Shown here one piece after another: positions 14,199 through 29,310 of a stretch of 64,000 nucleotides of DNA. How positions within the stretch are numbered: position 1 is the stretch's first letter; each line of letters opens with the position of its first letter. Position numbers and translations under genes: made by a program. This DNA comes from Lachnoclostridium sp. An118 (GTDB lineage: Bacteria; Bacillota; Clostridia; Lachnospirales; Lachnospiraceae). The notes under the pieces were generated by a model. The model was given only the letters and a program-made list of their open reading frames with translations. It did not search any database and was not told the DNA's origin. The DNA is taken from positions 186,001-250,000 of the forward strand of contig NZ_NFLQ01000002.1 of assembly GCF_002160985.1 (NCBI RefSeq), read 5' to 3'.

Positions 14199-14200
14199 AT

Positions 14201-14477: not shown

Positions 14478-14479
14478 TA

Positions 14480-15367
14480 TTAAACAGTTGCGTGCCGCCT
14501 GACGAAGTCTTTGAAGTCGTTGATGGCGGGCGCCTGGTACACGTCCTTCAGGGTGCACATGTAGAACATCCGCTCCCAGGTGGGATTGACGATGCGGATG
14601 ATCTGCACCGGCATGTAGGCAAGGAGAGCCATGTGGGGCACCACAGCGATGCCGAAGCCGGCGGACACAAGACCTGCCACAGCCTGGTCCTCCTCTACCT
14701 CGTAAGTATACTGGGGCTGGCCTTTGCACTCCTTGAACAGCCTGTCGATGATGGGGCGCAGACCGCTCCGCCGGGAAAAACCAATATGGGGATAGGGAAG
14801 CGTGTCGGCCAGGTCTATCTCATCCCGGGTGCACAGCGGATGGCCGTTGGGAACGATCAGGACCAGCTCCTGCTTGGCGACGGGAACGAACTCAATAGAC
14901 GGCTCGTTTTCCATTTTTGAGCAGAAGGCGATATCGTACTTCCGGTTCTTCAGCCCCTCGATCATGTCCGGCGTAAGGCCGGTGGAGTTGTGAAAGCGGA
15001 AATCAATGTTCTGTTTTGGATGTTCCTTTAGATAGTCCCGCACCAGGCCGGGGACGAGCTGTGTGCTCAGCGTGCGCAGCATGGCGATGTCGATCTGCCC
15101 CTCGCCGCTGCCCGTCATCTGCAGCTTGTTTACACTGGAGTCCAGAATGCTCAGAGACTGCTCCACATCCTCGAGAAAGGCCTGCCCGCACTTGGTCAGG
15201 ACGACATTGCGCCCCTCCTTTTCGAACAGCTTTACCCCAAGCTCGCTTTCCAGAGACGAGATGGCGTGGCTGAGGCTGGGCTGTGTGATAGACAGCAGCT
15301 CCGCTGCCCTTGTGTAGTGCTCCAGATGGGCGAGGGTCACAAAATACCGTAAATGATATAGGTTCAT
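14480..15367 (-). CDS. LysR-type transcriptional regulator of the hydroaromatic cluster
   Basis: A 295-residue LysR regulator with an N-terminal winged helix-turn-helix (residues ~1-60, AAELLSITQPSLSHAISSLE) and a two-lobed effector domain. LysR proteins bind T-N11-A boxes and activate when they bind a pathway metabolite. It is transcribed away from the operon at 15561, the classic arrangement for LysR control of a neighbour. The shared 193-bp region holds candidate boxes and a near-consensus promoter. AGGAGG lies 7 nt before the ATG. Quinate, shikimate or a dehydro form are likely effectors, inferred from the neighbouring genes. Confidence 0.92.
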   Translation of the reverse strand: MNLYHLRYFVTLAHLEHYTRAAELLSITQPSLSHAISSLESELGVKLFEKEGRNVVLTKCGQAFLEDVEQSLSILDSSVNKLQMTGSGEGQIDIAMLRTLSTQLVPGLVRDYLKEHPKQNIDFRFHNSTGLTPDMIEGLKNRKYDIAFCSKMENEPSIEFVPVAKQELVLIVPNGHPLCTRDEIDLADTLPYPHIGFSRRSGLRPIIDRLFKECKGQPQYTYEVEEDQAVAGLVSAGFGIAVVPHMALLAYMPVQIIRIVNPTWERMFYMCTLKDVYQAPAINDFKDFVRRHATV

Positions 15368-15407
15368 CGAGGTTCCTCCTGTGTATATATTGGATATATT
15401 TTATCAC

Positions 15408-15427
15408 AAACTATAAATAGTTTCTAT
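15408..15427. promoter_or_regulatory. Candidate LysR operator
   Basis: AAACTAT-AA-ATAGTTT (15408-15423) is a perfect 7-bp inverted repeat. Overlapping it, ATAA-N7-CTAT (15413-15427) fits the T-N11-A LysR box. Its centre (15420) is about 65 bp upstream of the predicted start near 15485, the usual place for the LysR recognition site. Confidence 0.6.
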
Positions 15428-15449
15428 GAATTCGTGCTATATTATGAAT

Positions 15450-15478
15450 TTGTTTTTATTTTAACAATAGAATATAAT
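15450..15478 (+). promoter_or_regulatory. Sigma-A promoter of the hydroaromatic operon
   Basis: TTGTTT (15450-15455) and a perfect TATAAT (15473-15478) are separated by 17 bp. The spacer contains TTTTAACAA, part of a 17-bp word also found at 29169-29185 upstream of aroE-aroD. Confidence 0.75.
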
Positions 15479-15560
15479 AAAGGCATAGTAAATATCACAA
15501 GATTGAACGAAGAAAAAGTGAGAGAAGTGTTCAATTTTAACAACGGAAGGAGAAAAAACT

Positions 15561-16400
15561 ATGTCAAAGAAAAATCCAATCACAGTCAGCTCATGGACAT
15601 TAGGCGACCAGTGCAAATTTGAGGATCGTGTAATCGCTGCAAAAGAAGCAGGATACGAGGGTATCGGCCTTCGCGCAGAGACATACGTGGATGCGCTGAA
15701 CGAGGGACTCTATGATGAGGACATCCTGGCAATCCTTGACAAGCACGGCATGAAGGTGACAGAGGTTGAGTATATCGTGCAGTGGGCAGAGGACAACCGT
15801 TCCTACGAGCAGAAATACAAAGAGCAGATGTGCTTCCACATGTGCGATCTGTTCGGCGTGAACCACATCAACTGCGGACTGATGGAAAACTACTCTGTTG
15901 AGCACACAGCACAGAAATTAAAAGAGCTCTGCCACAGAGCCGGCAAGCGGATCATCGGCGTAGAGCCAATGCCCTACAGCGGAATCCCGGATCTGAAAAA
16001 AGCATGGGATGTAGTGAAAGCCTCCGGCGCTGAGAACGCATACATGATCCTGGATACATGGCACTGGGTAAGAGCAGATCAGCCATACGACATCCTGACA
16101 GAGGAGATGGCGAAGAAAGTCATCTCCATCCAGATCAACGATGCCTATGACAGACCGTATGCAAAATCCATCCTGAGAGATGAGTCCATGCATGACCGTC
16201 TCGCTCCCGGAACAGGCGCGAAAGACACAGCTGGTTTCGTGAAGATGATCAAGGATGCCGGAGTTGACCCGAAGGTTATCGGTGTGGAAGTCATCTCTGA
16301 TGAGATCCTTTCAAGAGGACTGAAAGAGGCTGCTGCTTATACATATGAAAACACAGAAAAAGTGTTAAAAGAAGCATGGCCGGAAATGGTTGAGGACTAA
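15561..16400 (+). CDS. Sugar-phosphate isomerase/epimerase-like TIM-barrel protein
   Basis: A 279-residue xylose-isomerase-like TIM barrel. The probable metal ligands are Glu135 (VEPMPYS), Asp165 (LDTWHW, with His168), Gln in IQINDAY and Glu243 (GVEVIS). This fold includes sugar epimerases but also 3-dehydroshikimate dehydratases (AsbF/QuiC type), which turn 3-dehydroshikimate into protocatechuate. Because two shikimate dehydrogenases and a dehydroquinase are nearby, a role as dehydratase or isomerase of a dehydroshikimate-like compound is plausible but unproven. It is the first gene of the operon, with GGAAGGAG 8 nt before the ATG, and its codon use is like that of the glycolytic genes. Confidence 0.85.
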   Translation: MSKKNPITVSSWTLGDQCKFEDRVIAAKEAGYEGIGLRAETYVDALNEGLYDEDILAILDKHGMKVTEVEYIVQWAEDNRSYEQKYKEQMCFHMCDLFGVNHINCGLMENYSVEHTAQKLKELCHRAGKRIIGVEPMPYSGIPDLKKAWDVVKASGAENAYMILDTWHWVRADQPYDILTEEMAKKVISIQINDAYDRPYAKSILRDESMHDRLAPGTGAKDTAGFVKMIKDAGVDPKVIGVEVISDEILSRGLKEAAAYTYENTEKVLKEAWPEMVED

Positions 16401-16431
16401 GAAGAATAAAAGGAAACAGTAACGCAGACAT

Positions 16432-16499
16432 TCGGACTTATCTTTTTGACTTGCGCGTCACGATTTCGAGGTTACGTATGATCGGAGAGATAAGTCCGA
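16432..16499 (+). promoter_or_regulatory. Long-range inverted repeat in the operon spacer
   Basis: TCGGACTTATCT (16432-16443) pairs perfectly with AGATAAGTCCGA (16488-16499) across a 44-nt loop, with ACA/TGT continuing the stem past one bulge. It lies in the 200-bp gap between the first two genes. It has no T-run, so it looks more like an RNA processing or stability structure than a terminator. Confidence 0.55.
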
Positions 16500-16600
16500 T
16501 GTGCGCAGCCAAAGAGTGTTAAAAAAGTGACGGGAATGATAAAAACCTGTCAGAATAACCGTAAGTGAAAATATGAATAGTTGAGAGTGAGGAAAAAATT

Positions 16601-18526
16601 ATGAAATTTAGGACAATGTTCTCCCCGATCCAGGTTGGACCTATGACAGTAAAAAACCGCTTTGTTGTTCCGCCCATGGGCAATAACTTTGCCAACACGG
16701 ACGGAACATGGAGCGACCAGTCTGTTGCCTACTACGCAGAGAGGGCAAAAGGACAGTTCGGACTGATCACTATTGAGGCGACAGTGGTACACAACAACGC
16801 AAAAGGCGGACCGAGAAAGCCTTGTCTCTATGATGACAACAGCATTGAGAGCCTGAAGAAGATCACAGATGCCTGTCACGCTGAGGGGGCAAAGGTCTCC
16901 ATCCAGCTGCAGAACGCAGGCCCGGAGGGAAATGCGGTGAACGCAGGCGCACCGATCGTGGCAGCTTCTGCCATCCCTTCTGTATATGGAAAGGACACAC
17001 CGGTGGAGGTGCCGACAGAGACAGTATATGAGCTGGTAAAAGGCTACGGCGATGCCGCTGAGCGCGCCATGAAGGGCGGAGCCGACGCGGTGGAGATCCA
17101 TATGGCTCACGGCTACCTTGTGAATTCTTTCATTTCCCCGAGAACCAACAAGCGTACCGATGAATTCGGCGGAAACTTTGAGAACAGGATGCGCTTCCCG
17201 CGCCTGATCGTGGAGGAAGTAAAGAGAAGAGTGGGCGGCAAAGTTGCCATCCTGGCCCGCATCAACAGCTCCGACGAAGTGGAAGGCGGGGATGACGTAC
17301 ATGACAGCGCAGCCATCGCAGCATACCTGGAAGACTGCGGCGTGGAGGGACTTCATGTATCCCGTGCCGTGCATATCAAAGACGAGTATATGTGGGCTCC
17401 AACAGCTGTACATGCAGGATTTTCCGCTGACCTTGTGACAGAGATCAAAAAGGCTGTGTCCATCCCGGTCATCACAGTGGGACGCTACACAGAGCCCTAT
17501 TTCGCAGAGCTGATGGTAAGAGAAGGACGTGCGGACCTGGTGGCTTTCGGACGCCAGTCACTGGCAGATCCCCGCATGCCTGAGAAGGCCATGAACGATA
17601 AGCTGGAGGATATGTTCCCCTGTATCGCATGTCTCCAGGGATGTGTGGCAAACATGTACAAAGGCGAGCCGATCTGCTGTCTTGTAAACCCCTTCCTGGG
17701 CCATGAGGCAGAGGGCCTGAAAAAGGCTGAGAAATCCAAGAAAGTCATGGTCATCGGCGGCGGTGTGGCCGGCATGTGCGCAGCTTTTATCGCAGCGGAG
17801 AGAGGACATGATGTGTCTCTGTACGAGAGCACAGACAGACTGGGCGGAAATATGCGTCTGGCTGCTTACCCGCCCGGAAAAGGTGACATCACAAACATGA
17901 TCCGCAGCTACATCGTAAGATGTGAGAAGGCCGGCGTGAAGATCCACAAAAACACAACCGTTGATCTGGACTTTGTGAAAGCAGAGAAACCGGATGCAGT
18001 GATCGTGTCAACTGGTTCCCGCACACTGATCCTTCCTATCGAGGGCATCGACAACCCGGCTATCATCCACGGCTCCGACCTGCTGGACGGCAAGAGAGCT
18101 GCCGGCAAGAAAGTCCTTGTCGTAGGCGGCGGTATGGTGGGCTGCGAGACAGCTGCCTTCTTAGGAGAGCAGGAGCATGATGTGACAGTCATCGAGTTCC
18201 GCGACACAGTGGGCGCTGACGTGATCCACGAGCACAGAGTATTCCTTATGGAAGACTTTAAGAATTATGATATCAAACAGATCACAAACGCAAAGGTATG
18301 CAAGTTCTATGAGGACGGCGTGGCATATGAGTCCCCGGACGGAACCATGCATGAAGTGAGAGGATTTGACTCTGTTGTCCTTTCCATGGGATTCAGAAAC
18401 TACAATCCTTTTGCCGAGCAGCTGGAAGAGCTTGGACAGGAAGTCTATGTGATCGGTGACGCCACAAGGGCAAGAAGAGCTCTGGACGCCACAAAAGAAG
18501 CCTACGCAGCCGCGATCCAGATCTAA
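16601..18526 (+). CDS. FadH/BaiCD-type flavin, Fe-S and NAD(P)H ene-reductase
   Basis: A 641-residue enzyme of the 2,4-dienoyl-CoA reductase/BaiCD type. Residues 1-~335 are an Old-Yellow-Enzyme FMN barrel (HMAHGYLVNSFISPRTNKRTD, FGGNFENRMRF as shorter blocks). Cys341, 344, 348 and 360 (C-x2-C-x3-C-x11-C) hold a [4Fe-4S] cluster. GGGVAGMCAA starts an FAD domain and GGGMVGCETA an NAD(P)H domain. Relatives reduce C=C bonds conjugated to a carbonyl. The usual QL-x-H-x-GR pocket motif reads QLQNAGP (Asn105, Pro108), so the substrate differs from dienoyl-CoA. In this operon an enone such as 3-dehydroshikimate is a reasonable guess. Confidence 0.9.
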   Translation: MKFRTMFSPIQVGPMTVKNRFVVPPMGNNFANTDGTWSDQSVAYYAERAKGQFGLITIEATVVHNNAKGGPRKPCLYDDNSIESLKKITDACHAEGAKVSIQLQNAGPEGNAVNAGAPIVAASAIPSVYGKDTPVEVPTETVYELVKGYGDAAERAMKGGADAVEIHMAHGYLVNSFISPRTNKRTDEFGGNFENRMRFPRLIVEEVKRRVGGKVAILARINSSDEVEGGDDVHDSAAIAAYLEDCGVEGLHVSRAVHIKDEYMWAPTAVHAGFSADLVTEIKKAVSIPVITVGRYTEPYFAELMVREGRADLVAFGRQSLADPRMPEKAMNDKLEDMFPCIACLQGCVANMYKGEPICCLVNPFLGHEAEGLKKAEKSKKVMVIGGGVAGMCAAFIAAERGHDVSLYESTDRLGGNMRLAAYPPGKGDITNMIRSYIVRCEKAGVKIHKNTTVDLDFVKAEKPDAVIVSTGSRTLILPIEGIDNPAIIHGSDLLDGKRAAGKKVLVVGGGMVGCETAAFLGEQEHDVTVIEFRDTVGADVIHEHRVFLMEDFKNYDIKQITNAKVCKFYEDGVAYESPDGTMHEVRGFDSVVLSMGFRNYNPFAEQLEELGQEVYVIGDATRARRALDATKEAYAAAIQI

Positions 18527-18576
18527 GCGGAGCAGGGCAGAGGCACAGTGCAAGAATGATTGAGGAGGAAAAGATC

Positions 18577-19452
18577 ATGGAAAAAAGAATTTCTGGACAT
18601 ACAGGACTGATGGCATTATTTGGAAGCCCGGTGGGACATTCTGGTTCCCCGGCCATGTACAACTTCAGCTTCCAGCACGACGGACTGGACTACGCGTACC
18701 TGGCGTTCGACGTGACTGTGGAGCAGATGCCGAAAGTATTTGAGGCCATCCGCCTTTTCAAAATGCGGGGCGGAAACTTCACCATGCCCTGCAAGAACAT
18801 TGCTGCAGAGCTGGTGGACAAGCTGTCACCGGCGGCAGAGATCATCGGTGCCTGCAACACCTTTGTCAATGATGAAGGTGTTATCACAGGACACATCACA
18901 GACGGTATCGGCTTTGTGAACAACCTGGCTCTCAACGGTTTTGACGTGAAGGGCAAAAAGGCAGTGATCCTGGGAGCAGGCGGCGCTGCCACAGCCATCC
19001 AGGTGCAGTTTGCCCTGGACGGAGCAAAAGAGGTGCACATCTTTAATATCAAAGACGAGTTCTATGCAAGAGCAGAGGGAACAAAAGAGAAGCTGGCGCA
19101 GAAATGCCCGGACTGCCTTGTCACAGTAGACGACCTGGACGACAAGGAGAAGCTGGCAGAGGCTGTAAAAGACTGCGACATCGTGATCAATGCCACCATC
19201 ATGGGCATGAAGCCCTACGATGACGTGACGCTCATCGACAAGTCCCTTTTCCGCAAGGACCTTGTAGTAGCTGACACAGTCTACAATCCGGAGAAGACAA
19301 AGATGATCCTGGAGGCTGAAGAGGCAGGATGCAAGGCCATCGGCGGCGTGGGCATGCTCCAGCAGCAGGGCGTTGTCAACTACGAGCTCTTTGTAGGAAA
19401 GAAAATGCCTCTGGACGAGTACAACAAGTTCCAGGCAGAGCAGGCAAAATAA
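18577..19452 (+). CDS. aroE: YdiB-type quinate/shikimate dehydrogenase
   Basis: A 291-residue AroE-family enzyme that interconverts shikimate (or quinate) and its 3-dehydro form. Substrate residues are visible: Ser22 and Ser24 (HSGSP), Asn67 and Thr69, catalytic Lys73 (TMPCK), Asn94 (ACNT) and catalytic Asp109 (GHITDGIG). The Rossmann loop is GAGGAATA. The following FNIKDEF resembles the FNRRDEF of E. coli YdiB, which lets it use NAD as well as NADP, and GMLQQQ ends the site. I chose the ATG at 18577, 8 nt after GAGGAGG. It lies inside the operon and no biosynthetic aro gene adjoins, so a catabolic role is favoured. Confidence 0.93.
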   Translation: MEKRISGHTGLMALFGSPVGHSGSPAMYNFSFQHDGLDYAYLAFDVTVEQMPKVFEAIRLFKMRGGNFTMPCKNIAAELVDKLSPAAEIIGACNTFVNDEGVITGHITDGIGFVNNLALNGFDVKGKKAVILGAGGAATAIQVQFALDGAKEVHIFNIKDEFYARAEGTKEKLAQKCPDCLVTVDDLDDKEKLAEAVKDCDIVINATIMGMKPYDDVTLIDKSLFRKDLVVADTVYNPEKTKMILEAEEAGCKAIGGVGMLQQQGVVNYELFVGKKMPLDEYNKFQAEQAK

Positions 19453-19483
19453 TATAGTTTGAACGAGAAAAGGAGTAAGAGAA

Positions 19484-20761
19484 GTGAAGGCGAAAAAGTA
19501 TATCTTATCACTGGCAATGGTATACATGGCGTACTTTACCCATGGTATCCAGGCGATCATCCTGTCACAGAACCAGGTAAACTTCTACACCCAGTGGGGG
19601 TACACGGACGCAGTGGAAGGTGCGGCGGCCGTGTCCCTGGCGATCACAGCGACAGGTTTCGGTAAAATGCTGACTGTATGGCTGGGCGGAGAATTCTCAG
19701 ACCGCATCGGCCGTAAAAAGATGGCAGTTGCGGGCGGCGTGCTCTATATCATCTGCTTTGCGGGACTTCTGTTCACGGCAAGCTTCCCCATCGCATGTGT
19801 ATGTGCATTCCTCTCAGGAGCAGCTACGTCCGGTTTCTGGGATGCATCCCTGTATCCGGCAGCTCAGGAGTCTGTAAAACCGAGATACGCAGGAAGTGCT
19901 CTGATCGGTATCAAATTCTTCGTGTCTCTGTCCGGCATCATTTATCCGCTGTTGGCTGTGCAGTTCTCAGCAGCAGGAAACTGGCACATCAACATCTGGA
20001 TCCCGCTTGTTATGTCCATTGTTGCGGTTGTGCTGGCAGTGATCGCACCCTTTGCCTATGACGATCAGATGAAAGAGACCGTACAGACAGCAGACGGCAA
20101 GACAGAGAATGCGGCACAGGCTGAGATCGAGGCCGCAAGGGCAAGAATGCTTGTAAAACCAAGCGGACTGGTAAACTTCTTTACCATGTTCTACGGATTT
20201 GTATGTATGTTCATCATGTACGGCGCGCAGCAGTACACAAAGGCCTTCGGTATGAGCAACTGCGGTCTGACTGAGGCGCAGGCGGCGGGCATGACGTCCA
20301 TCTACACAGTGGGCTCTGTCATCGCTGTTGTGTTCTGGGCGGTCATGATGGGTAAACTGCAGTGGAATCCGCTGAAGGTAGTCCTGATCGACTCCATCTT
20401 TACGGCAGTGGCCCTCGCCATTGTCCTCCTTGTGAGCAACGTGGCCGTGATCTATGTGGCCATCGCCCTGCTTGGCTTCTTCGCAGCAGGCGGAGCACTC
20501 CAGACAGGTCTTGGGATCCGTCAGGAGATGTGCCCCGGCCCGAAGGGAAGAAACACTGGTATCTACTATACATGGATGGGACTTGCAAGCTGCTTCCTGC
20601 CCTACATTGTATCAGCCATGACCACCTCTATCGGAGAGGCTGCAGCTGTATACACTATGATGGGACTTCTCCTTGCAGCAGCAGTCATTGCCATCCTGAT
20701 GATGCTCTACCTTGTATCTCAGTATAAGAAGATCTTTGGTAAGAGCGCTCTGACGAAATAG
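19484..20761 (+). CDS. MFS transporter of the hydroaromatic operon
   Basis: A 425-residue major facilitator protein with about 12 hydrophobic helices. The family loop motif is present as GGEFSDRIGRKKM after helix 2, and a charged central loop (residues ~195-225) separates the two halves. In E. coli the similar gene ydiN sits directly before ydiB and aroD, which supports quinate or shikimate as cargo; this is inference from gene order. It starts with GTG, 9 nt after AAAGGAG, 31 bp behind the dehydrogenase gene. Strongly expressed codon choice is shared with the upstream genes. Confidence 0.88.
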   Translation: MKAKKYILSLAMVYMAYFTHGIQAIILSQNQVNFYTQWGYTDAVEGAAAVSLAITATGFGKMLTVWLGGEFSDRIGRKKMAVAGGVLYIICFAGLLFTASFPIACVCAFLSGAATSGFWDASLYPAAQESVKPRYAGSALIGIKFFVSLSGIIYPLLAVQFSAAGNWHINIWIPLVMSIVAVVLAVIAPFAYDDQMKETVQTADGKTENAAQAEIEAARARMLVKPSGLVNFFTMFYGFVCMFIMYGAQQYTKAFGMSNCGLTEAQAAGMTSIYTVGSVIAVVFWAVMMGKLQWNPLKVVLIDSIFTAVALAIVLLVSNVAVIYVAIALLGFFAAGGALQTGLGIRQEMCPGPKGRNTGIYYTWMGLASCFLPYIVSAMTTSIGEAAAVYTMMGLLLAAAVIAILMMLYLVSQYKKIFGKSALTK

Positions 20762-20928
20762 TACATACTGTGCATAAACAGTACAGTAAGACTGAGTGAA
20801 AAGTGACCCGCTGGAATGGACACAATAACCATAGAATGTATCCTGACTAGCGGGCCATTTTATATACAAATCATAGATAAAAAGAATAGATAATGCTGTG
20901 AAAAGCTATAAAATAGGGAGGTTTCAAC

Positions 20929-21429
20929 ATGAAAGTACTCAGATGGCTGGACCAGTATCTGGAGGAAGCCCTTCTCCTCATCATGCTGTGCGCCATGACG
21001 CTGGTCATGGGCGTGCAGGTGGCGGCAAGGTATGTGCTGGGCTCATCGCTTTCCTGGTCTGAGGAGATCACAAGATTTCTCTTCATCGTTTCCGGATTTA
21101 TCAGTGCCAGCTTCTGCATCAAAAAAGGCGCGTCGGTGAAGATCGACCAGCTGGTGGGCATGCTGCCGGGAAAGGGCGTGCATATTTTCCGGCTCATCAG
21201 CTACTCTGTACAGCTTGTATTTTTTGCGTACCTGATCCCCTTTGCCTGGAAATATGTCGCGGCGGGCATGGAGAGCGGGCAGCGCAGCCCTGCCTGCGGT
21301 ATCCCCATGTACATCATCCAGTCTTTTACCGTGATCAGTTTCGTCCTCTGCGTGATCCGGCTCATCCAGAAATGGCTGTACCGGCTGCAGATCATCCTTG
21401 GAGTAAGAGATGGAAAGGAGGAGGAGTAA
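20929..21429 (+). CDS. TRAP transporter small permease (DctQ type)
   Basis: A 166-residue membrane protein with four hydrophobic helices and the DctQ pattern SLSWSEEITRFLF after helix 2. It forms the membrane complex with the large DctM subunit to drive sodium- or proton-linked uptake of an organic acid caught by the binding protein. GGGAGG lies 7 nt before the ATG. The stop touches the start of the next gene. It begins 167 bp after the MFS gene, with an imperfect CCCGCT/AGCGGG hairpin and no strong terminator between, so read-through from the operon is possible. Confidence 0.9.
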   Translation: MKVLRWLDQYLEEALLLIMLCAMTLVMGVQVAARYVLGSSLSWSEEITRFLFIVSGFISASFCIKKGASVKIDQLVGMLPGKGVHIFRLISYSVQLVFFAYLIPFAWKYVAAGMESGQRSPACGIPMYIIQSFTVISFVLCVIRLIQKWLYRLQIILGVRDGKEEE

Positions 21430-22722: not shown

Positions 22723-22740
22723 AAAAGGAGGATAAAGAAG

Positions 22741-23766
22741 ATGAAGAAGATATGGAGTGCAGTGACGGTTGTCCTCCTTACGGCTGTCAGCGCGGGCGTC
22801 ATAGTCTACGGCTCTTCTGTGTCTGACAGAAAAATAGATACGTCCGGGAAGCAGACCTACGCCTGGCCCCTGGCCACCTGCAGCACAGAGGACACCATCA
22901 CCCATGTATTTGCGCAGACCTTTGCGGAGGAAGTGGAGCGCCTGAGCGGAGGAGAGATGGAGATCCAGGTGTACCCCCAGAGCACGCTGGGAGGGGACAG
23001 AGAGCTGATGGAGAGCTGCAAGGACGGGGATATCCCCTTTGTGGTCCAGTCCCCGGCGCCTCAGGTGAGCTTTATGCCGGAGCTGTGCGTCTTTGACACG
23101 CCCTGCGTGTTCGACGACATAGAGGAAGCCAGGGCGGCCATCGATGATCCGGAATTTTTTTCTGTCATACAGGGGATCTACGAGGACGCCGGCTACCAGA
23201 TCCTGGGCATGGCGGACCAGTGCTTCCGCGTCATGACCAGCAGCGAGCCCTTCACAGGCATGGAGAGCTTTAAAGGACAGAAGATACGGACCATGGAGAA
23301 CACCTATCACATCCAGTTCTGGAACGCGGTGGGCGCCAGCCCCACGCCCATGACTTTCAGCGAGGTCTACATCGGCCTGCAGCAGGGGACGATAGACGCC
23401 CAGGAAAACGCCTACGAACTCATTGTCAGCGCCAAGCTCTATGAGCAGCAGGAAGTGCTGGTACAGACCAACGCGGTCCCCGACTATATCACCCTCATTG
23501 TCAGCGACGACTTTTTCCGGGACCTGGACAAGGAACAGCAGCAGATCGTCCGGGAGGCAGCTGCTATCGCCCAGGAGAAGGCCCGGGAGTCCGCGGACGA
23601 GAGAAGAGAGCAGCGGGAAGAAGAGCTGGCGGCAGAGGGCATGGAGATCGTGGAGATCGACCAGCAGACCTGGGAGGAAATGCAGGAGGCATGCCAGCCG
23701 GTGTATGAGAATATAAGAAAACAGGCGGGAGATGAGCTTGTGGACCTCTACATGGGAGTGGAGTAA
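22741..23766 (+). CDS. TRAP transporter substrate-binding protein (DctP type)
   Basis: A 341-residue extracytoplasmic binding protein. Residues ~1-25 are a hydrophobic signal anchor without a lipobox Cys. The TRAP ligand region is seen as FRVMTSSEPFTGMESFKGQKI (shortened: FTGMESFKGQKIR, with the carboxylate-binding arginine) and QQGTIDAQENAYELI. The C-terminal 60 residues are a long charged helix (KARESADERREQREEEL). TRAP binding proteins select carboxylates by a salt bridge to that arginine. It ends the three-gene transporter set and is followed by a strong terminator. AAAGGAGG precedes the ATG. Confidence 0.92.
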   Translation: MKKIWSAVTVVLLTAVSAGVIVYGSSVSDRKIDTSGKQTYAWPLATCSTEDTITHVFAQTFAEEVERLSGGEMEIQVYPQSTLGGDRELMESCKDGDIPFVVQSPAPQVSFMPELCVFDTPCVFDDIEEARAAIDDPEFFSVIQGIYEDAGYQILGMADQCFRVMTSSEPFTGMESFKGQKIRTMENTYHIQFWNAVGASPTPMTFSEVYIGLQQGTIDAQENAYELIVSAKLYEQQEVLVQTNAVPDYITLIVSDDFFRDLDKEQQQIVREAAAIAQEKARESADERREQREEELAAEGMEIVEIDQQTWEEMQEACQPVYENIRKQAGDELVDLYMGVE

Positions 23767-23805
23767 AACGTCCGCTGAGAGAGCCGTCCGGCTGACACAT
23801 TTAGT

Positions 23806-23836
23806 GAGGATCTGTCTGCTTGACGGATCCTCTTTT
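23806..23836 (+). terminator. Terminator of the TRAP operon
   Basis: GAGGATCTGTC (23806-23816) pairs with GACGGATCCTC (23822-23832), with one T-G mismatch, around TGCTT and is followed by TTTT. Confidence 0.88.
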
Positions 23837-23889
23837 GTCATGTAAGGTTAAGAGAAGAGAGAAATATGACAGCGGATGGAGGGAAGGAC

Positions 23890-24564
23890 ATGCGCATTTT
23901 GATAGCGGAGGATGAGAAAAATTTAAACAAGATACTGGTTTCCAGGCTGACAGCGGAGCACTACAGCGTGGACGCCTGCTTTGACGGGCAGGAGGCCCTG
24001 GACTACCTGGCGGGGGCGGAGTATGACGCGGTGGTGCTGGACATTATGATGCCGTTCATGGACGGGCTGACCGTGCTCCGGAAGATCCGGGCCAGGGACA
24101 AGTCCCTGCCGGTGCTCCTATTGACTGCCAGGGACAGCATTGAGGACCGGGTGGCAGGGCTGGACGCGGGTGCCAACGACTACCTCGTAAAGCCCTTTGC
24201 GGTGGAGGAACTGCTGGCCCGGATACGGGTCATGCTGCGAAAACCGGATCAGAGCGGAGAGGGGAACTGTCTGACGGTGGGGGACCTGACCCTGTGCACG
24301 GACACCCACAAGGTGACCCGGGCGGGGAAAGAGATCAGCCTGTCCGGGAAGGAGTACACGTTGCTGCGTTATATGATGCAGAACCAGGGCATCGTCCTCT
24401 CCCGGGACAAGCTGGAGCAGCACATATGGAACTACGATTTCGCAGGAGGGTCCAACGTCATCGACGTATATATCCGGTATCTGCGCAGGAAGATCGACGA
24501 GGGACATGAGAAGAAACTGATACACACAGTCCGGGGAGCCGGCTATGTACTGAGGGCGGAATGA
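23890..24564 (+). CDS. OmpR-family response regulator
   Basis: A 224-residue regulator with a receiver domain (residues 1-~115) and a C-terminal winged helix. The acidic pair lies in EDEKN, the phosphorylated Asp in VVLDIMMP, and the conserved Thr/Lys in LLTARD and VKPFAVEELLAR. The DNA-binding end shows LSGKEYTLLRYMMQNQG and TVRGAGYVL. I chose the ATG at 23890, 6 nt after GGAGGG; an ATG at 23866 lacks a site. It overlaps the kinase gene by 4 bp. Downstream genes for an RsgI-like and a PepSY protein suggest an envelope-sensing job rather than control of the TRAP genes. Confidence 0.95.
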   Translation: MRILIAEDEKNLNKILVSRLTAEHYSVDACFDGQEALDYLAGAEYDAVVLDIMMPFMDGLTVLRKIRARDKSLPVLLLTARDSIEDRVAGLDAGANDYLVKPFAVEELLARIRVMLRKPDQSGEGNCLTVGDLTLCTDTHKVTRAGKEISLSGKEYTLLRYMMQNQGIVLSRDKLEQHIWNYDFAGGSNVIDVYIRYLRRKIDEGHEKKLIHTVRGAGYVLRAE

Positions 24565-25913
24565 TGAAGAGATGGTCGATCAAACTGAAGCTGACGTGCC
24601 TGTACGGGGGATTTATGATCCTCCTCATTGTGGCGGCCCTGGCTATCCTGTTTTCTCTCAGCACCCAGGAGGTCCTCTCCTCCGTACAGTCAGATTTAAA
24701 AGAGCAGGTGCAGGGCAGTGTGGAGGAGCTGGAGGCAGGAGAGGGGGAGCTGGAGGTGGACTCAGACTTTTACACTATGGAGAACGGGGTCTATCTGTCG
24801 GTGTACGGTGTGGACGGCACGTTCCTGTACGGGCGGATCCCCACCGGCTTTGGCAGCCAGACGGATTTTGAGCATGACACCCTGCGCACGGTCCGGGAGG
24901 GACAGGAAACCTTCTATGTATTTGATATGAGCCAGGATATAGAGGGGTACGGCCCTGTCTATATCCGGGGCATCACCTCGGTCACAAGAGCGGAGAACAG
25001 CTTTACCGTGACGCTGCGGTTTGCCCTCATCCTCCTGCCCGGCCTGGCGGTGGTGCTGGTCCTCCTGTCCTATTTCTTTGTCAGGAGGGCCCTCCTGCCC
25101 GTGCGGCGTATCACGGATACTGTGAAGGAGATACGGGAGGAGGCGGACCTGTCCAGGAGAGTGGACCTGCCCGGCGGAAGGGACGAGATCTACCATCTGG
25201 CGGACACCTTTGACCATCTGCTCTCAGAGCTGGAGGAGGCGTTTGCCAGGGAGAGGCAGTTCACCTCCGACGTGTCCCACGAGCTGCGGACCCCGGCTGC
25301 AGTGATCCTGCTCCAGAGCGAGGAGCTGCTGTCAGACCCTTCCCTGTCTGAGCCGCAGAGAGAACAGCTGGAGGCCATCCGGAAAAAGGCCGGGGACATG
25401 TCTGCCATGATCTCCCAGCTCCTTCTTCTGTCCCGGGCGGACCAGGGGCGCCAGGTGCTCCAGAAGGAGCCTCTGGATATCAGCGAGCTGACCCTGATGA
25501 CGGCGGAAGAACAGCAGCTGCTGGCAGATGAGAAGCACATCTCCATTGTGACGGACATTGAGCCGGGGATCGTGATGGAGGCGGACGAGAGCTTTTTCAT
25601 CCGGCTTCTCGTGAACCTTATCTCCAACTCCATCTCCTACGGGCGGGAGGGGGGCACCACAAAGGTGTCCCTGCACCGGGAGGAGAAGGCGGCGGTCCTC
25701 TCCGTGGCAGATGACGGGCAGGGCATGGAGGAGAAGGACCTTCCCCGCATCTGGGACCGGTTCTACCGCGCGGACGCCTCCCGCAGCGATGCCGGCCACT
25801 CCGGGCTTGGCCTCTCCATTGTAAAATGGATCGCCGGGGAGCACGGCGGTGAGGTGGCCGTGGAGAGCGAGAAGGGGAAAGGCAGCGTCTTTACCTGCAG
25901 ATTTCCCCTGTAA
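24561..25913 (+). CDS. Membrane sensor histidine kinase
   Basis: A 450-residue kinase. Two TM helices (residues ~12-32 and ~155-178) flank an extracytoplasmic sensor of about 120 residues (DFYTMENGVYLSVYGVDG). A HAMP linker follows, then the HisKA phosphoacceptor in SHELRTPAAV, and the ATP-binding N (LLVNLISNSISYG), D (DDGQGM), F and G (GHSGLGLSIV) boxes. It should phosphorylate the overlapping response regulator. The ligand is unknown. It overlaps the regulator by ATGA; an alternative ATG lies 3 bp further on. Confidence 0.95.
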   Translation: MMKRWSIKLKLTCLYGGFMILLIVAALAILFSLSTQEVLSSVQSDLKEQVQGSVEELEAGEGELEVDSDFYTMENGVYLSVYGVDGTFLYGRIPTGFGSQTDFEHDTLRTVREGQETFYVFDMSQDIEGYGPVYIRGITSVTRAENSFTVTLRFALILLPGLAVVLVLLSYFFVRRALLPVRRITDTVKEIREEADLSRRVDLPGGRDEIYHLADTFDHLLSELEEAFARERQFTSDVSHELRTPAAVILLQSEELLSDPSLSEPQREQLEAIRKKAGDMSAMISQLLLLSRADQGRQVLQKEPLDISELTLMTAEEQQLLADEKHISIVTDIEPGIVMEADESFFIRLLVNLISNSISYGREGGTTKVSLHREEKAAVLSVADDGQGMEEKDLPRIWDRFYRADASRSDAGHSGLGLSIVKWIAGEHGGEVAVESEKGKGSVFTCRFPL

Positions 25914-26013
25914 ATAAAAAAAATCCGGATTTTTGAATGGAACGGGAGCGCTGGTTCGTATTCTTAGTGAAACAGTAAAAACAATTTCATTTAAAAAGAT
26001 GGAGGGATCAGAT

Positions 26014-26424
26014 ATGAAGAGGATCACAGCGGCGATAACAGCAGCGGCGGCAGTGGCGGCAGCAGCCTGCCTCGTCCTCATCGCTCTCGCCTCGGGGGGC
26101 AGCTATGTCTTTTTCACCCCAACGGCCTACATCAGCATTGACATCAATCCATCCCTGGAGCTTGGCATCAACCGGTTTGACAGGATCGTGTCCGTGGAGG
26201 GATATAACGCGGAGGCGGAGGAGCTGCTGGATGAGCTGGACATCCGCTTCCTGCCCTACCAGGAGGGACTCCAGGAGCTGCTGGAGTCCTGCGGCGTGGA
26301 CGCTGAGGGCATCCAGTCCGGGACAGAGGAGGAAGACGCAGGGGACGATACAGAGGAAGATGGAGGCAGCAGATACCGCCATCACGGGGAAAAGGAAGAG
26401 GAGAGCGGACACCGGCACGAGTGA
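26014..26424 (+). CDS. Single-pass protein with RsgI-like extracytoplasmic domain
   Basis: A 136-residue protein: a TM helix at residues ~5-27, then the block YISIDINPSLELGINRFDRI plus VSVEGYNAEAEELL. That block is the hallmark of the middle domain of RsgI-type anti-sigma factors in Clostridia. The usual cytosolic anti-sigma domain is absent and the tail is short, acidic and His-rich (RYRHHGEKEEESGHRHE). It is therefore a stand-alone or truncated RsgI relative and may act as an accessory sensor for the two-component system it follows. I chose the ATG at 26014, 8 nt after GGAGG; a longer frame to 25933 has no site. Confidence 0.72.
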   Translation: MKRITAAITAAAAVAAAACLVLIALASGGSYVFFTPTAYISIDINPSLELGINRFDRIVSVEGYNAEAEELLDELDIRFLPYQEGLQELLESCGVDAEGIQSGTEEEDAGDDTEEDGGSRYRHHGEKEEESGHRHE

Positions 26425-26567
26425 GAGAAGGACTGTATTTAAATTTCCTGAACTGCAGGCCAGAGGGAGTATCCGGTATCAAAATGCTCTGCAAGATATT
26501 TTAAATGGGGTGTCAGCGTTTTCAAGTCCGGAATACAGGTTCAGGAAAAAATCACAAATTCTTCTTG

Positions 26568-26601
26568 TTTTAATGTTCTTTTAATCTTTTCTGGTTATAG
26601 T
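26568..26601 (+). promoter_or_regulatory. Direct-repeat site and promoter of the PepSY gene
   Basis: TTTTAAT at 26568-26574 and 26579-26585 form a direct repeat with an 11-bp period over the -35 position, followed by TATAGT at 26596-26601. OmpR/PhoP-type regulators bind such repeats, so this may be an output site of the adjacent response regulator. Confidence 0.5.
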
Positions 26602-26679
26602 AAGTACAACAAAGGAAAACAGCTATAAAAAATCAAGAAAGGGACCGGTTCAGGCAGGGCCGGGAAAGGGAATGAAAAG

Positions 26680-27297
26680 ATGAGAAGATATAAGAGATTG
26701 ACAACAGCGCTTCTGGCCGCGGCAGTGGCGGCAGGTATTGTGACAGGCTGCGGAGCTTCCGGTCAGGATATCGGACAGGACGAGGCCAAGAGGATCGCCT
26801 TTGAGGATGCGGGCGTGAGCGAGTCCGACACATCCAGACTGAAGGTGGAAAAGGACAGGGACGACGGTGTGCTCCAGTATGACGTGCAGTTCAGCGTGGA
26901 CGAAAAGGAGTACAACTATGACATCAACGGTGCCAACGGTGAGATACTGAGTGCGGATGTGGAGACAAAAGGGACAGCCGGCCAGAGCGCCGCAGCCTCC
27001 GGCCAGGATGACACAGCCGCCGGCGCAGGCGCAGGAAATACGGACAATACCGGGAACACGGGAAATACCGGAAGCACGGCGGGAGCGGCTGATGTGGCGG
27101 TCAGTGAGGCGGACGCCAGGGCCGCAGCCCTGGAGAGAGTGCCGGGAGCCACTGAGGCGGATATCCGCATGGAGCTGGACTTTGATGACGGATACTATAT
27201 CTACGAGGGAGATATCATCTACGACCAGAAAGAGTACGAATTTGAGATTGACGCCCAGACAGGCAGCTTCCTGAAGTGGAGCGAGGAGAGACATTAG
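26680..27297 (+). CDS. Lipoprotein with two PepSY domains
   Basis: A 205-residue exported lipoprotein with signal residues 1-23 ending VTGC. Two PepSY domains follow. The first (residues ~30-85) holds DEAKRIAFEDAGV and YDVQFSVDEKEYNYDIN. The second (~143-200) holds ARAAALERVPGA and YIYEGDIIYDQKEYEFEID. A low-complexity linker rich in Gly, Ala, Thr and Asn (NTDNTGNTGNTGS) joins them. PepSY domains often inhibit or chaperone secreted peptidases or act beside envelope two-component systems, as here. It has its own promoter with a direct-repeat site. It ends before a perfect terminator. Confidence 0.87.
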   Translation: MRRYKRLTTALLAAAVAAGIVTGCGASGQDIGQDEAKRIAFEDAGVSESDTSRLKVEKDRDDGVLQYDVQFSVDEKEYNYDINGANGEILSADVETKGTAGQSAAASGQDDTAAGAGAGNTDNTGNTGNTGSTAGAADVAVSEADARAAALERVPGATEADIRMELDFDDGYYIYEGDIIYDQKEYEFEIDAQTGSFLKWSEERH

Positions 27298-27337
27298 GTC
27301 TCACGGGAAATTCAAACACCACAGATACAAAAAGACA

Positions 27338-27381
27338 GGGCAGGCGCCGGACAAAAGAGAGAAAGTCCGGCGCCTGCCCTT
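27338..27381. terminator. Bidirectional terminator between the PepSY gene and aroD
   Basis: GGGCAGGCGCCGGAC (27338-27352) pairs perfectly with GTCCGGCGCCTGCCC (27365-27379), 15 bp, around a 12-nt A/G-only loop. An AAAAAGA run on the left provides T residues for the minus-strand transcript. Confidence 0.85.
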
Positions 27382-27455
27382 GCAATGATTGTTTCTACAG
27401 CTGCCCAGAAGGGCGACAGCAGTCGTCTCATAGCCCTGATGAGCCTGTGTCCATC

Positions 27456-28223
27456 TTACTCGCCCAGCGCGTTGTGGACCGAGGTCAGGACCTGACGCAG
27501 CTCCCCGGCGCCGATCTGCCCCGGGGCGGAGGCCATGGAGCCTGAGCCGAAGGTGAGGCAGGAGCCGAAGACCTCGCAGGAGAGACGGCTGATGCTGCCA
27601 AGGCCTGCCATGGACATGGTGATGATGGGGCGGTCCGCATAGTCGGAGGCCATCTCCTCCGTGGCGGACAGGAGAGTCAGTACATCCCTTTTGCTCCTGG
27701 GCATGACGGCGATCTTGGGGATGTCCGCTCCCATATCCTGCATCTTGCGCAGCCGGTAGAGGATGTCAGACTTTGCCGGTGTCTTGTCAAAGTCGTGGTT
27801 GGAGGCAACCACCTTTGTGCCGGATGCGTGGATGGCGCTGATGAGGTCAGAGACAACCCCGTCTCCCGTGAAGATCTCCACGTCGATCAGGTCCGCCAGC
27901 CCCGTGGCGGCCACAGCCTTGTTGAGGGATACGTAGGCGGTGGTGTCCATCTCATGGACGCCGCCCTCCTTTTTTGTGCGGAAGGTGAAGAGGAGAGGAG
28001 TGTCCCCCAGCTTCTCTCTGACGCCGGACAGCACGTCCAGTACGGCCTGGGTGTCCTCCACACCCTCAAACCAGTCCACCCGCCACTCCATCAGGTCCAT
28101 GGACATGGACCTGTACTGCTCTGTGAGGGAGAGGATCTCCTCCTTCGTCTTTCCTACATTGGGGATGCACACAGCCGGGATACCGCTCCCCAGCTCCAGA
28201 TTTCTCACTTTTACTGTATTCAT
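27456..28223 (-). CDS. aroD: Type I 3-dehydroquinate dehydratase
   Basis: A 255-residue type I dehydroquinase, which interconverts 3-dehydroquinate and 3-dehydroshikimate through a Schiff base. The active-site residues fall at the same numbers as in E. coli AroD: Glu46 and Arg48 (MEWRVD), His143 (SNHDF) and Lys170 (KIAVMP). The closing loop region SMASAPGQ is present. Type I enzymes serve both biosynthesis and quinate breakdown. Pairing with a YdiB-type aroE, as in E. coli ydiB-aroD, and the catabolic cluster next door favour breakdown. I chose the ATG at 28223 after AGGAGGG; a start at 28250 would overlap aroE. The aroE stop is 13 bp upstream. Confidence 0.96.
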   Translation of the reverse strand: MNTVKVRNLELGSGIPAVCIPNVGKTKEEILSLTEQYRSMSMDLMEWRVDWFEGVEDTQAVLDVLSGVREKLGDTPLLFTFRTKKEGGVHEMDTTAYVSLNKAVAATGLADLIDVEIFTGDGVVSDLISAIHASGTKVVASNHDFDKTPAKSDILYRLRKMQDMGADIPKIAVMPRSKRDVLTLLSATEEMASDYADRPIITMSMAGLGSISRLSCEVFGSCLTFGSGSMASAPGQIGAGELRQVLTSVHNALGE

Positions 28224-28236
28224 GGCTCCCTCCCTC

Positions 28237-29136
28237 CTAGTCTTCGTCATCGTCTGTGTAGACGTAGGAGATGCCGAGCTTCTCCTTCATGTACTCGCTG
28301 TCCACTCTCTGTCCCAGCATCAGCTCAATAGCCGCGATGGCCTGGAAGAGCATCATGCCCTGGCCGTTCATGGTCTTGCAGCCGGCTTTTCTGGCCATCT
28401 TCAGCATGGCTGTCTCGTGGGGAGAGTACACAACGTCTGTCACGATCAGGTCCGGGCGGAAGAAGGAGGCGTCCGGAATGTAGGTGATGCCCTCCAGAGG
28501 CTTCATGCCCACGCCGGTGGCGTTGGTGAACAGATAGCTGTCAGCCATCTCTGCTTTTAAGCGGTCCAGGTCCTCCAGAGGATAGAAGACAGCCTTGCAG
28601 TTTGTGTTCTCGTTGATCTTTTTTACTGTCTCAAGAGCATTGTCCTTGAACCTGTCATCCCTGGCGAAGATGGACATCTCGGCCACGCCGTCCAGGGCGG
28701 ACTGGATCTGTACAGCTGTGGCAGCTCCGCCGGAGCCTGCGATGGTGACCTTCTTTCCTGTGGGGTCAATGCCGTTGTCCTTCAGGGACTGCACATAGCC
28801 GATGCCGTCTGTGTTGTGGCCGATCAGGTAGCCGTCCTTGTTCACGATAGTGTTGACTGCCCCGCAGAGCTGGGCCGCGGGGGACACCTCGTCCAGATAT
28901 TTGTGTACAATGGTCTTGTTCGGCATGGAGATATTGGAACCACGCATTTTCAGGGCTCTCAGGCCTTTGATGGCGTCCTCCAGGTCGTCTGCGTCCACCT
29001 CAAAAGCAAGGTTGACAATATCCAGGCCCAGCTTTTCGTAGGCGGCATTGTGGGTGGCAGGTGACTGGGAATGGCGGATGGGGTATGCCATAAGTCCGAT
29101 CAGCTCTGTGTGCCCGGTAATCTGGTGTCTTTCCAT
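28237..29136 (-). CDS. aroE: Second YdiB-type shikimate/quinate dehydrogenase
   Basis: A 299-residue AroE-family enzyme, clearly distinct from the one at 18577. Substrate residues are Ser23 and Ser25 (HSQSP), Asn68, Ser70 (where Thr is usual), catalytic Lys74 (SMPNK), Asn95 (AVNT) and Asp110 (GHNTDGIG). The cofactor loop is GSGGAATA. The ARDDRF after it and the INENTNC string resemble E. coli YdiB. A charged C-terminal tail (YTDDDED) extends past the fold. It heads a two-gene operon with aroD, with AAAGGAGAG before the ATG. The divergent region to spoIVA holds a LysR-like box. Confidence 0.94.
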   Translation of the reverse strand: MERHQITGHTELIGLMAYPIRHSQSPATHNAAYEKLGLDIVNLAFEVDADDLEDAIKGLRALKMRGSNISMPNKTIVHKYLDEVSPAAQLCGAVNTIVNKDGYLIGHNTDGIGYVQSLKDNGIDPTGKKVTIAGSGGAATAVQIQSALDGVAEMSIFARDDRFKDNALETVKKINENTNCKAVFYPLEDLDRLKAEMADSYLFTNATGVGMKPLEGITYIPDASFFRPDLIVTDVVYSPHETAMLKMARKAGCKTMNGQGMMLFQAIAAIELMLGQRVDSEYMKEKLGISYVYTDDDED

Positions 29137-29175
29137 AATTCATCTCTCCTTTGATAAAAGCTTTTGTCTGTTTTT

Positions 29176-29205
29176 ATTTTAACAAAACGGACATGGCCAA
29201 ACCAA
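29176..29205 (-). promoter_or_regulatory. Predicted promoter of aroE-aroD
   Basis: On the minus strand TTGGTT (29205-29200) and TAAAAT (29181-29176) are 18 bp apart, giving a start near 29169. The region overlaps the 17-bp word shared with the operon promoter at 15451-15467. Confidence 0.5.
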
Positions 29206-29226
29206 TACTTAATATGCATGAAAATC

Positions 29227-29241
29227 ATAGACGAAATCTAT
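29227..29241. promoter_or_regulatory. Candidate LysR box upstream of aroE-aroD
   Basis: ATAG-N7-CTAT at 29227-29241 fits T-N11-A and resembles the ATAA-N7-CTAT box at 15413-15427. Its centre is about 65 bp upstream of the predicted aroE start. Confidence 0.5.
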
Positions 29242-29272
29242 CGAATGAAAATTCTAAATGAAACAGGGGATG

Positions 29273-29280: not shown

Positions 29281-29310
29281 CTAACAGCACATGTGGAAGG
29301 GGCGCGGACT

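What the first reader, a model, noticed from the sequence alone, without database searches (positions are those of the whole stretch)
14480..29136. Probable anaerobic quinate/shikimate catabolic regulon with a reductive step
In 15 kb there are a LysR regulator, a TIM-barrel isomerase/dehydratase-like protein, a FadH-type ene-reductase, two YdiB-type dehydrogenases, a type I dehydroquinase, an MFS and a TRAP transporter. No aroA, aroB, aroC, aroK or aroF is present, so this is not the biosynthetic pathway. E. coli has a related ydiN-ydiB-aroD arrangement. Here the added flavin/Fe-S ene-reductase and the absence of any oxygenase suggest that dehydroshikimate-like enones are reduced, perhaps as an electron sink, rather than aromatised and cleaved with oxygen. 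I know of no described pathway with exactly this gene set, but I could not search.
Basis: partly seen in the sequence, partly recalled or inferred. Interest (0 to 1): 0.82.

Follow-up and report, generated by a model that had tools for sequence, protein, structure and literature searches.

The report
Quinate/shikimate utilisation island, Listeria qui-type
A gut bacterium carries a gene island for taking up and converting the plant acids quinate and shikimate, matching a gene set known from Listeria, and because its genome seems to lack the usual first two steps of aromatic amino acid synthesis, the island may also be its way of starting to make aromatic compounds.

Summary
The gene list is correct. 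The host is a Lachnospiraceae bacterium close to Claveliimonas. The set is not unique: Listeria monocytogenes carries both units in the same order (LysR-TIM-OYE-SDH-MFS and LysR-OYE2-SDH-AroD), and the second unit's LysR is the shikimate-binding regulator QuiR. A promoter motif trained on other genomes finds the window's TIM promoter and, on another contig, the promoter of a second ene-reductase.

(1) 'Not biosynthetic' does not hold. Elsewhere the genome has aroA, tyrA, aroC and a chorismate mutase-shikimate kinase fusion. No class I DAHP synthase, DHQ synthase or type II DHQ dehydratase was found, and no AroD or SDH other than those here. Exogenous quinate or shikimate is the likely entry to chorismate. 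(2) 'Reduced rather than aromatised' is not shown. The TIM protein carries active-site residues of a dehydroshikimate dehydratase, which aromatises without oxygen. The ene-reductase is still a fixed partner (13 of 13 TIM loci), and on a lactobacillus plasmid an unrelated flavoprotein takes its place, so a reductive branch is plausible but unproven. Verdict: new variant of a known kind; the chorismate-salvage link is the interesting part.

The parts
14480..15367 (-). QuiR-type LysR regulator, divergent from the operon
   Evidence: Pfam LysR; best PDB match 5TED Lmo0488/QuiR effector domain, 178.9 bits, next 90; 57% identical to the LysR beside the Listeria TIM unit, 48% to QuiR
15419..15455 (+). 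predicted QuiR-type operator/promoter of the TIM operon
   Evidence: 28.8 bits with a matrix trained on 42 other LysR-TIM intergenic regions, Claveliimonas-type loci left out; best of 20 shuffled windows -2.7
15561..16400 (+). QuiC-like TIM-barrel protein (probable dehydroshikimate dehydratase or related dehydratase)
   Evidence: PF01261; 2g0w Lmo2234 322 bits; invariant E135 D165 H168 Q191 S209 R213 E243; fold near QuiC1 5hmq, TMq 0.81-0.83, and IolI, 0.82
16601..18526 (+). OYE1: FMN/4Fe-4S/FAD-type ene-reductase of the FadH/BaiCD superfamily
   Evidence: PF00724 + PF07992; BaiCD model 529 bits, cut-off 825 not reached; conserved C341 C344 C348 C360, H167, H170, Y172
18556..19452 (+). SDH1, YdiB-type quinate/shikimate dehydrogenase
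   Evidence: NF009200 457.9 bits, over cut-off 432
19484..20761 (+). MFS transporter (GTG start)
   Evidence: PF07690 98.6 bits
20929..21429 (+). TRAP small permease DctQ
   Evidence: PF04290
21430..22722 (+). TRAP large permease DctM
   Evidence: TIGR00786 423.9 bits, over cut-off
22741..23766 (+). TRAP solute-binding protein DctP; ligand not known
   Evidence: TIGR00787 188.5 bits, over cut-off; many PDB relatives are sialate or dicarboxylate binders by name
27456..28250 (-). AroD, type I 3-dehydroquinate dehydratase, the only one found in the genome
   Evidence: TIGR01093 231.9 bits, cut-off 139.3; genome searches
28237..29136 (-). SDH2, YdiB-type shikimate dehydrogenase; overlaps AroD by 14 bases
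   Evidence: NF001313 438.5 bits, over cut-off 431; 3tnl Listeria SDH 359 bits
29199..29235 (-). weak candidate operator upstream of SDH2-AroD
   Evidence: second-best site of the window and rightly placed, but -5.5 bits is within the range of shuffled windows: suggestive only

Best explanation
It is an anaerobe's version of the Listeria qui regulon. A LysR regulator that probably senses shikimate switches on uptake (MFS, TRAP) and conversion of quinate and shikimate. YdiB-type SDHs interconvert quinate/dehydroquinate and shikimate/dehydroshikimate; AroD joins dehydroquinate to dehydroshikimate (DHS). From DHS there are three exits: shikimate, then by the CM-shikimate kinase fusion, AroA and AroC (encoded elsewhere) to chorismate; dehydration by the QuiC-like TIM protein; and C=C reduction by OYE1 (and OYE2 on another contig), which would re-oxidise NAD(P)H. 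In this lineage the chorismate exit looks obligatory because no class I DAHP synthase or DHQ synthase was found. Shown: gene content, counterparts of both Listeria units, a shared operator at the TIM and OYE2 promoters, the searched part of the enzyme inventory, purifying selection on aroA and aroC. Inferred: substrates, directions, the reductive step, the need for exogenous hydroaromatics.
For: Counterparts of both units in L. monocytogenes: LysR 57%, TIM 56%, OYE1 65%, SDH1 56% (its two MFS only 27-29%); and LysR 48%, OYE2 55%, SDH2 58%, AroD 52%. The second unit's LysR is QuiR (5TED, 207 of 209 residues identical by eye), which binds shikimate (passage). Operator matrix: window TIM promoter 28.8, own OYE2 promoter 12.6, Listeria OYE2-SDH-AroD promoter 20.9. 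Genome inventory: AroD 1, SDH 2 (both here), DHQase II 0, PF01761 0, PF00793 0, aroC 1, CM-SK 1, aroA next to tyrA. aroB absent in the own genome and in the four with the nearest OYE1 among the genomes searched (93-100%), one of them a complete single-contig genome; present in 285 of 296 Lachnospiraceae. aroB is missing in 4 of 13 TIM-bearing against 7 of 283 TIM-less genomes, Fisher p=0.0006; by genus 3/11 vs 7/232, p=0.007; without the own genus 2/10 vs 7/232, p=0.047. CM-SK lies within the fetched stretch in 16 of 80 loci. dN/dS of aroC 0.07-0.09 and aroA 0.10-0.15 against three near relatives.
Against: The operon is not primarily for chorismate salvage: 41 of 53 searched genomes (52 with OYE1 loci, and the own) have a strong aroB match, and G003 keeps the operon although it lacks aroA, aroB and aroC matches. 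The window's LysR is nearer to the other Listeria LysR than to QuiR itself, so shikimate sensing is by analogy. The SDH2-AroD promoter match is within noise. Class II DAHP synthase (PF01474) and the archaeal DHQ route (PF01959) were not searched. DAHP synthase absence was tested in the own genome only. Transport of quinate/shikimate by these MFS/TRAP genes is guesswork. The TIM fold is as near to IolI as to QuiC1.
Confidence: 0.72

Rival explanations
1. One reading: an anaerobic catabolic electron-sink pathway in which DHS-like enones are reduced and not aromatised, with no role in biosynthesis.
For: OYE1 accompanies TIM in 13 of 13 TIM loci (12 adjacent, 1 one gene away). On the one Ligilactobacillus salivarius plasmid examined, the place between TIM and SDH holds an SDR and an unrelated FMN_bind/FAD_binding_2 flavoprotein of the fumarate-reductase/flavocytochrome c type, so a reductase seems to be the conserved role. 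DHS is an enone (chemistry, recalled).
Against: The TIM protein carries dehydroshikimate-dehydratase residues; the genome needs these AroD/SDH genes to supply the chorismate enzymes it keeps; CM-SK co-clusters. No substrate known.
Confidence: 0.35
2. Listeria-like protocatechuate route: quinate/shikimate to DHS to protocatechuate by the QuiC2-like TIM protein, protocatechuate as end product; the OYE plays an unrelated redox role.
For: All 7 polar QuiC1 active-site residues in the aligned stretch are kept and invariant in 21 TIM sequences. Titles of the Listeria QuiR and QuiC2 papers name protocatechuate biosynthesis genes and a distinct class of dehydroshikimate dehydratases (reference lists seen).
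Against: Does not explain the fixed OYE partner or its replacement by another flavoprotein reductase. The TIM protein scores only 27 bits on the QuiC model (cut-off 1200, a 635-position model). That QuiC2 is the Lmo2234 protein is my assumption.
Confidence: 0.35
3. The cluster is for other cyclic polyols or keto-acids (inositol-like) and the SDH/AroD genes are borrowed for biosynthesis only.
For: TIM fold equally near IolI; NCBIfam also reports weak hydroxypyruvate isomerase similarity.
Against: QuiR-type regulator and operator, sites upstream of AroD or SDH2 in several genomes, Q191 and S209 match QuiC1 and not IolI.
Confidence: 0.08
4. Decaying aromatic pathway: the lineage takes up aromatic amino acids; aroA/aroC are leftovers.
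For: G003 lacks aroA, aroB and aroC matches (its completeness is not told); incomplete shikimate pathways are common in host-associated bacteria (PMC3018139 passages).
Against: aroA, aroC and tyrA are intact and show dN/dS of 0.04-0.15 in the comparisons made; 11 of 12 aroB-lacking genomes of the 53 keep aroC (one match partial).
Confidence: 0.2

Closest known systems
Listeria monocytogenes qui regulon (QuiR; qui1 and qui2 operons, names recalled)
   Same: Both units present in the same gene order with a divergent LysR; same operator type upstream of the OYE2-SDH-AroD unit; that unit's LysR is QuiR.
   Different: Window adds a TRAP transporter, its MFS is only distantly related, OYE2 is not beside SDH2-AroD but elsewhere, divergent from CM-SK, and its genome has no detected class I DAHP or DHQ synthase.
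E. coli ydiN-ydiB-aroD
   Same: MFS, YdiB-type SDH and type I AroD (arrangement recalled; enzyme similarity).
   Different: No TIM, OYE, TRAP or QuiR there, as recalled; not examined here.
Aerobic quinate catabolism (QuiC/QsuB, protocatechuate, beta-ketoadipate)
   Same: AroD, SDH/QDH and a QuiC-like dehydratase.
   Different: No ring-cleaving oxygenase among the island genes scanned; single-domain TIM protein without the HPPD-like second domain.
Bile-acid BaiCD / FadH Fe-S flavoenzymes
   Same: Same domain architecture and Fe-S cysteines.
   Different: 529 bits against a BaiCD cut-off of 825; tied to SDH/TIM.
Ligilactobacillus salivarius plasmid cluster
   Same: MFS-MFS-LysR-TIM (72%)-x-x-SDH-AroD.
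   Different: OYE replaced by an SDR and a fumarate-reductase-type flavoprotein.

Membership tests
qui regulon (QuiR) | LysR regulator of the QuiR type divergent from the operon | tested here: met
   5TED QuiR domain 178.9 bits against 90 for the next chain; divergent at 14480-15367; nearer to the LysR of the other Listeria unit (57%) than to QuiR (48%)
qui regulon (QuiR) | both units have counterparts in Listeria | tested here: met
   tblastn of window proteins and of OYE2 on two Listeria loci; MFS only 27-29%
qui regulon (QuiR) | common operator at the target promoters | tested here: inconclusive
   TIM 28.8 and OYE2 12.6 bits clear; SDH2-AroD -5.5 within shuffles
qui regulon (QuiR) | activation by shikimate; protocatechuate formed | not testable with these tools
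   needs culture or reporter assay
Dehydroshikimate dehydratase (QuiC/QuiC1 type) | QuiC1 active-site residues R64 L97 E134 L136 D165 H168 Q191 S206 R210 E239 | tested here: inconclusive
   E, D, H, Q, S, R, E all matched as E135 D165 H168 Q191 S209 R213 E243; L136 is M137; R64 and L97 lie outside the aligned stretch (list from PMC7442255)
Dehydroshikimate dehydratase (QuiC/QuiC1 type) | NCBIfam NF042435 QuiC cut-off | tested here: not met
   27.4 bits, cut-off 1200 (635-position model)
BaiCD bile-acid flavoenzyme | NF041087 cut-off | tested here: not met
   529 of 825 bits
FadH/OYE Fe-S ene-reductase superfamily | Oxidored_FMN + Pyr_redox_2 domains with a four-Cys Fe-S motif | tested here: met
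   PF00724, PF07992; C341 C344 C348 C360 in at least 95% of 76 OYE1 and 90% of 22 OYE2 sequences
Complete de novo shikimate pathway | DAHP synthase and DHQ synthase present | tested here: not met
   PF00793 0 and PF01761 0 in the own genome; PF01474 and PF01959 not searched
Type I DHQ dehydratase | TIGR01093 cut-off | tested here: met
   231.9 bits, cut-off 139.3

The most novel reading that the evidence does not exclude
Dietary hydroaromatic acids serve this gut lineage both as the obligatory source of chorismate (the first two steps of aromatic synthesis are gone) and as an electron acceptor: the ene-reductase and the TIM dehydratase would carry out a reductive dehydroxylation of DHS towards 3,4-dihydroxycyclohexanecarboxylate, with the logic of bile-acid dehydroxylation.
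Probability: 0.3. Interest if true: 0.75.

Novelty: new variant of a known kind. Interest (0 to 1): 0.5.

Why it matters
It would explain why some gut Lachnospiraceae keep shikimate kinase, EPSP synthase and chorismate synthase without a detected way of making dehydroquinate: they would feed on quinate and shikimate from plants. That would make diet a direct control of aromatic amino acid synthesis in these bacteria, and would give the conserved OYE partner of the qui genes a testable role.

Tried and rejected
Considered and rejected: one 15-kb regulon (a two-component system with RsgI_M/PepSY proteins splits it); second shikimate kinase at C57 (scores best on homoserine kinase, 170.5 bits, cut-off 197 not reached); OYE1 as a BaiCD orthologue (below cut-off); calling the TIM protein a plain sugar isomerase. 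PDB relatives of DctP did not tell its ligand.

Led nowhere: paper searches for the cluster in anaerobes or for hydroaromatic salvage and for the Listeria locus tags gave no description of this cluster in the listings shown (10 to 25 papers each); the library holds few subscription journals. The two Listeria papers are not held; their titles were seen only in reference lists. PMC8389512 had no occurrence of the terms and PMC7064749 passages were irrelevant.

Limits: the genome-contig loci were found with OYE1 as query (80 kept of 576 stretches), so OYE1's presence there is by construction; the unbiased count is the TIM-centred one. The aroB and aroC searches took the own genome and those behind 52 of the 80 loci, picked by hand; 28 loci, mainly on short contigs or from repeated species, were left out. 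Some of the 52 have OYE1 without the rest of the operon (e.g. L056, L057, L062). Completeness of these genomes is not told. 42 of the 52 TIM-promoter hits are training loci; L004, L006, L007 and L008 were left out of training.

Full report
What is there. The window is G000:C12:186001-250000 of a 3.47-Mb genome in 57 contigs, 99.99% complete. The OYE protein is 100% identical to one of Claveliimonas monacensis DSM 108991, so the host is a gut Lachnospiraceae bacterium of or near that species. They form two units: LysR / TIM-OYE1-SDH1-MFS with DctQMP behind (14480-23766), and SDH2-AroD (27456-29136). Between them are a two-component system and RsgI_M and PepSY proteins.

More than chance. With OYE1 as query, 80 loci were taken from named genomes. 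ORF clustering (some loci are cut by contig ends) puts SDH in 67, TIM in 60, LysR in 58, two MFS types in 35 and 23, a second OYE (OYE2; 34% to OYE1 in the own genome) in 21, a chorismate mutase-shikimate kinase fusion (CM-SK) in 16, AroD in 15 and DctP in 13 of 80. Without that bias: TIM occurs in 13 of 296 Lachnospiraceae. In their loci of 3.8 kb, OYE1 is next to TIM in 12 and one gene away in 1, a LysR is present in 12 of 13, and CM-SK in 3 of 13.

Known relative. The TIM protein's nearest solved structure is Lmo2234 (2g0w, 322 bits), SDH2's is the Listeria SDH 3tnl (359 bits), and the LysR's is Lmo0488 (5TED, 178.9 bits, next 90). 5TED is QuiR of L. monocytogenes with shikimate (PMC11602165 and PMC9973260 passages). 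In an L. monocytogenes chromosome filed among the plasmids, the two units are present as LysR-TIM-OYE1-SDH1-MFS-MFS and LysR-OYE2-SDH2-AroD, and the LysR of the second is QuiR itself. L. innocua's second unit is annotated likewise. The window's LysR is 57% identical to the LysR of the TIM unit and 48% to QuiR. [quoted passage not shown] that its qui1/qui2 operons are these two units is my recall, not read. So the set is, as far as I can tell, a described regulon, here in an anaerobe.

Operator. A matrix from 42 LysR-TIM intergenic regions, Claveliimonas-type loci left out, scores the window's TIM promoter at 28.8 (15419-15455); the best of 20 mononucleotide shuffles of the window was -2.7. In 60 kb of other own-genome sequence the best site (12.6) lies upstream of OYE2 on contig C1, a gene divergent from CM-SK. 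In 84 loci there are 103 sites above 5: TIM 52 (42 training loci), OYE2 17, SDH2 5, AroD 4, SDH1 3, DctQ 2, OYE1 2, MFS 2, RR 1, none of the tested genes 15. The Listeria OYE2-SDH-AroD promoter scores 20.9. The window's SDH2-AroD promoter reaches only -5.5, which shuffles also reach.

Not simply catabolic. Own-genome searches: type I DHQ dehydratase 1 (here), SDH 2 (both here), type II DHQ dehydratase 0, DHQ synthase PF01761 0, DAHP synthase PF00793 0, chorismate synthase 1, shikimate kinase family 2, of which one is the CM-SK fusion and the other looks more like a homoserine kinase. AroA (TIGR01356 418 bits, cut-off 287) follows tyrA on contig C44; the other PF00275 match is MurA. PF00793 and PF01761 each rang in 11 of 14 control genomes. 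aroB is absent in G000 and in the four genomes G001-G004 with OYE1 93-100% identical, among them C. bilis, complete in one contig. Of the 53 genomes searched, 41 have a strong aroB match (E<1e-20) and 12 do not; 11 of these 12 have aroC, one of them partial, and G003 has none. In the family, aroB is in 285 of 296; it is missing in 4 of 13 TIM-bearing and 7 of 283 TIM-less genomes, p=0.0006, by genus 3/11 vs 7/232, p=0.007, and without the own genus p=0.047. These p-values ignore deeper relatedness. aroC and aroA show dN/dS of 0.07-0.15 between G000 and G001, G002 and G004 (synonymous sites saturated in the C. bilis comparison). The simplest reading is that chorismate is made from exogenous quinate, dehydroquinate or shikimate. 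Against a wider claim: most of the searched genomes have aroB, and G003 keeps the operon without aroA or aroC, so salvage is an added use and not the reason for the operon.

Chemistry. QuiC1-type active-site residues are listed in PMC7442255 (passages). Of those in the aligned stretch, E134, D165, H168, Q191, S206, R210 and E239 correspond to E135, D165, H168, Q191, S209, R213 and E243 of the TIM protein (the match itself is weak, E=0.005), invariant in 21 sequences; L136 is M137, and R64 and L97 are not covered. The predicted fold (pLDDT 90) is nearest to Lmo2234, then 3u0h (TMq 0.74), IolI (0.82) and QuiC1 (0.81-0.83), with IolE, tagatose 3-epimerases and AsbF further down. The metal ligands and R213 are shared with IolI, Q191 and S209 are not. 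For the reductive side: OYE1 is a fixed partner with conserved flavin/Fe-S residues (roles recalled), and on the L. salivarius plasmid examined the order MFS-MFS-LysR-TIM-SDR-flavoprotein-SDH-AroD puts a fumarate-reductase-type FMN_bind/FAD_binding_2 protein in its place; the same flavoprotein is on 28 Ligilactobacillus records. Two unrelated reductase types in one slot suggest that C=C reduction is the conserved step. Reduction of quinate/shikimate to 3,4-dihydroxycyclohexanecarboxylate by Lactobacillus plantarum is recalled from old literature (Whiting and Coggins) and was not found in the library. Substrate and product of OYE1 stay unproven.

Literature. Searches listed no paper on this cluster in Lachnospiraceae or on hydroaromatic salvage as an entry to chorismate; only the listed titles and abstract starts (8 to 25 per search) were read, plus passages of seven papers. 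Incomplete shikimate pathways in host-associated bacteria are known (PMC3018139, passages; the word quinate does not occur in its text).

Noticed in passing
L088:7265-9265(-) and 9528-10313(+), own genome contig C1: A second ene-reductase (OYE2, 34% to OYE1) stands divergent from a chorismate mutase-shikimate kinase fusion, with a QuiR-type operator facing OYE2.
   Followed up: partly
L112:8162-17094 (Ligilactobacillus salivarius plasmid pA): Plasmid-borne qui-type cluster with an SDR and a fumarate-reductase-type flavoprotein where OYE1 is expected; TIM is found on 28 Ligilactobacillus plasmid records.
   Followed up: partly
window 23866-27297: CopR/CopS-like two-component system followed by RsgI_M and PepSY proteins; close homologues (RR 82-98%) stand beside the island only in the four nearest loci L004, L006, L007, L008.
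   Followed up: no
window 13188-30783; L010, L011, L013, L039: The island sits between gpsA and spoIVA in several Lachnospiraceae, a stable chromosomal site.
   Followed up: no
L013:14199-15707(+), a cluster (c7) found in 17 loci: A conserved 502-aa protein, hydrophobic by eye, without any NCBIfam or Pfam match often stands behind the TIM operon.
   Followed up: no
NZ_CP030101.1: A 2.9-Mb Listeria monocytogenes record is filed as a plasmid in PLSDB; by size and content it is a chromosome.
   Followed up: no
L025, L047, L056, L062: Eggerthellaceae/Coriobacteriia carry OYE1 (62-80%), two of the four with TIM, but without the SDH and MFS neighbours.
   Followed up: no
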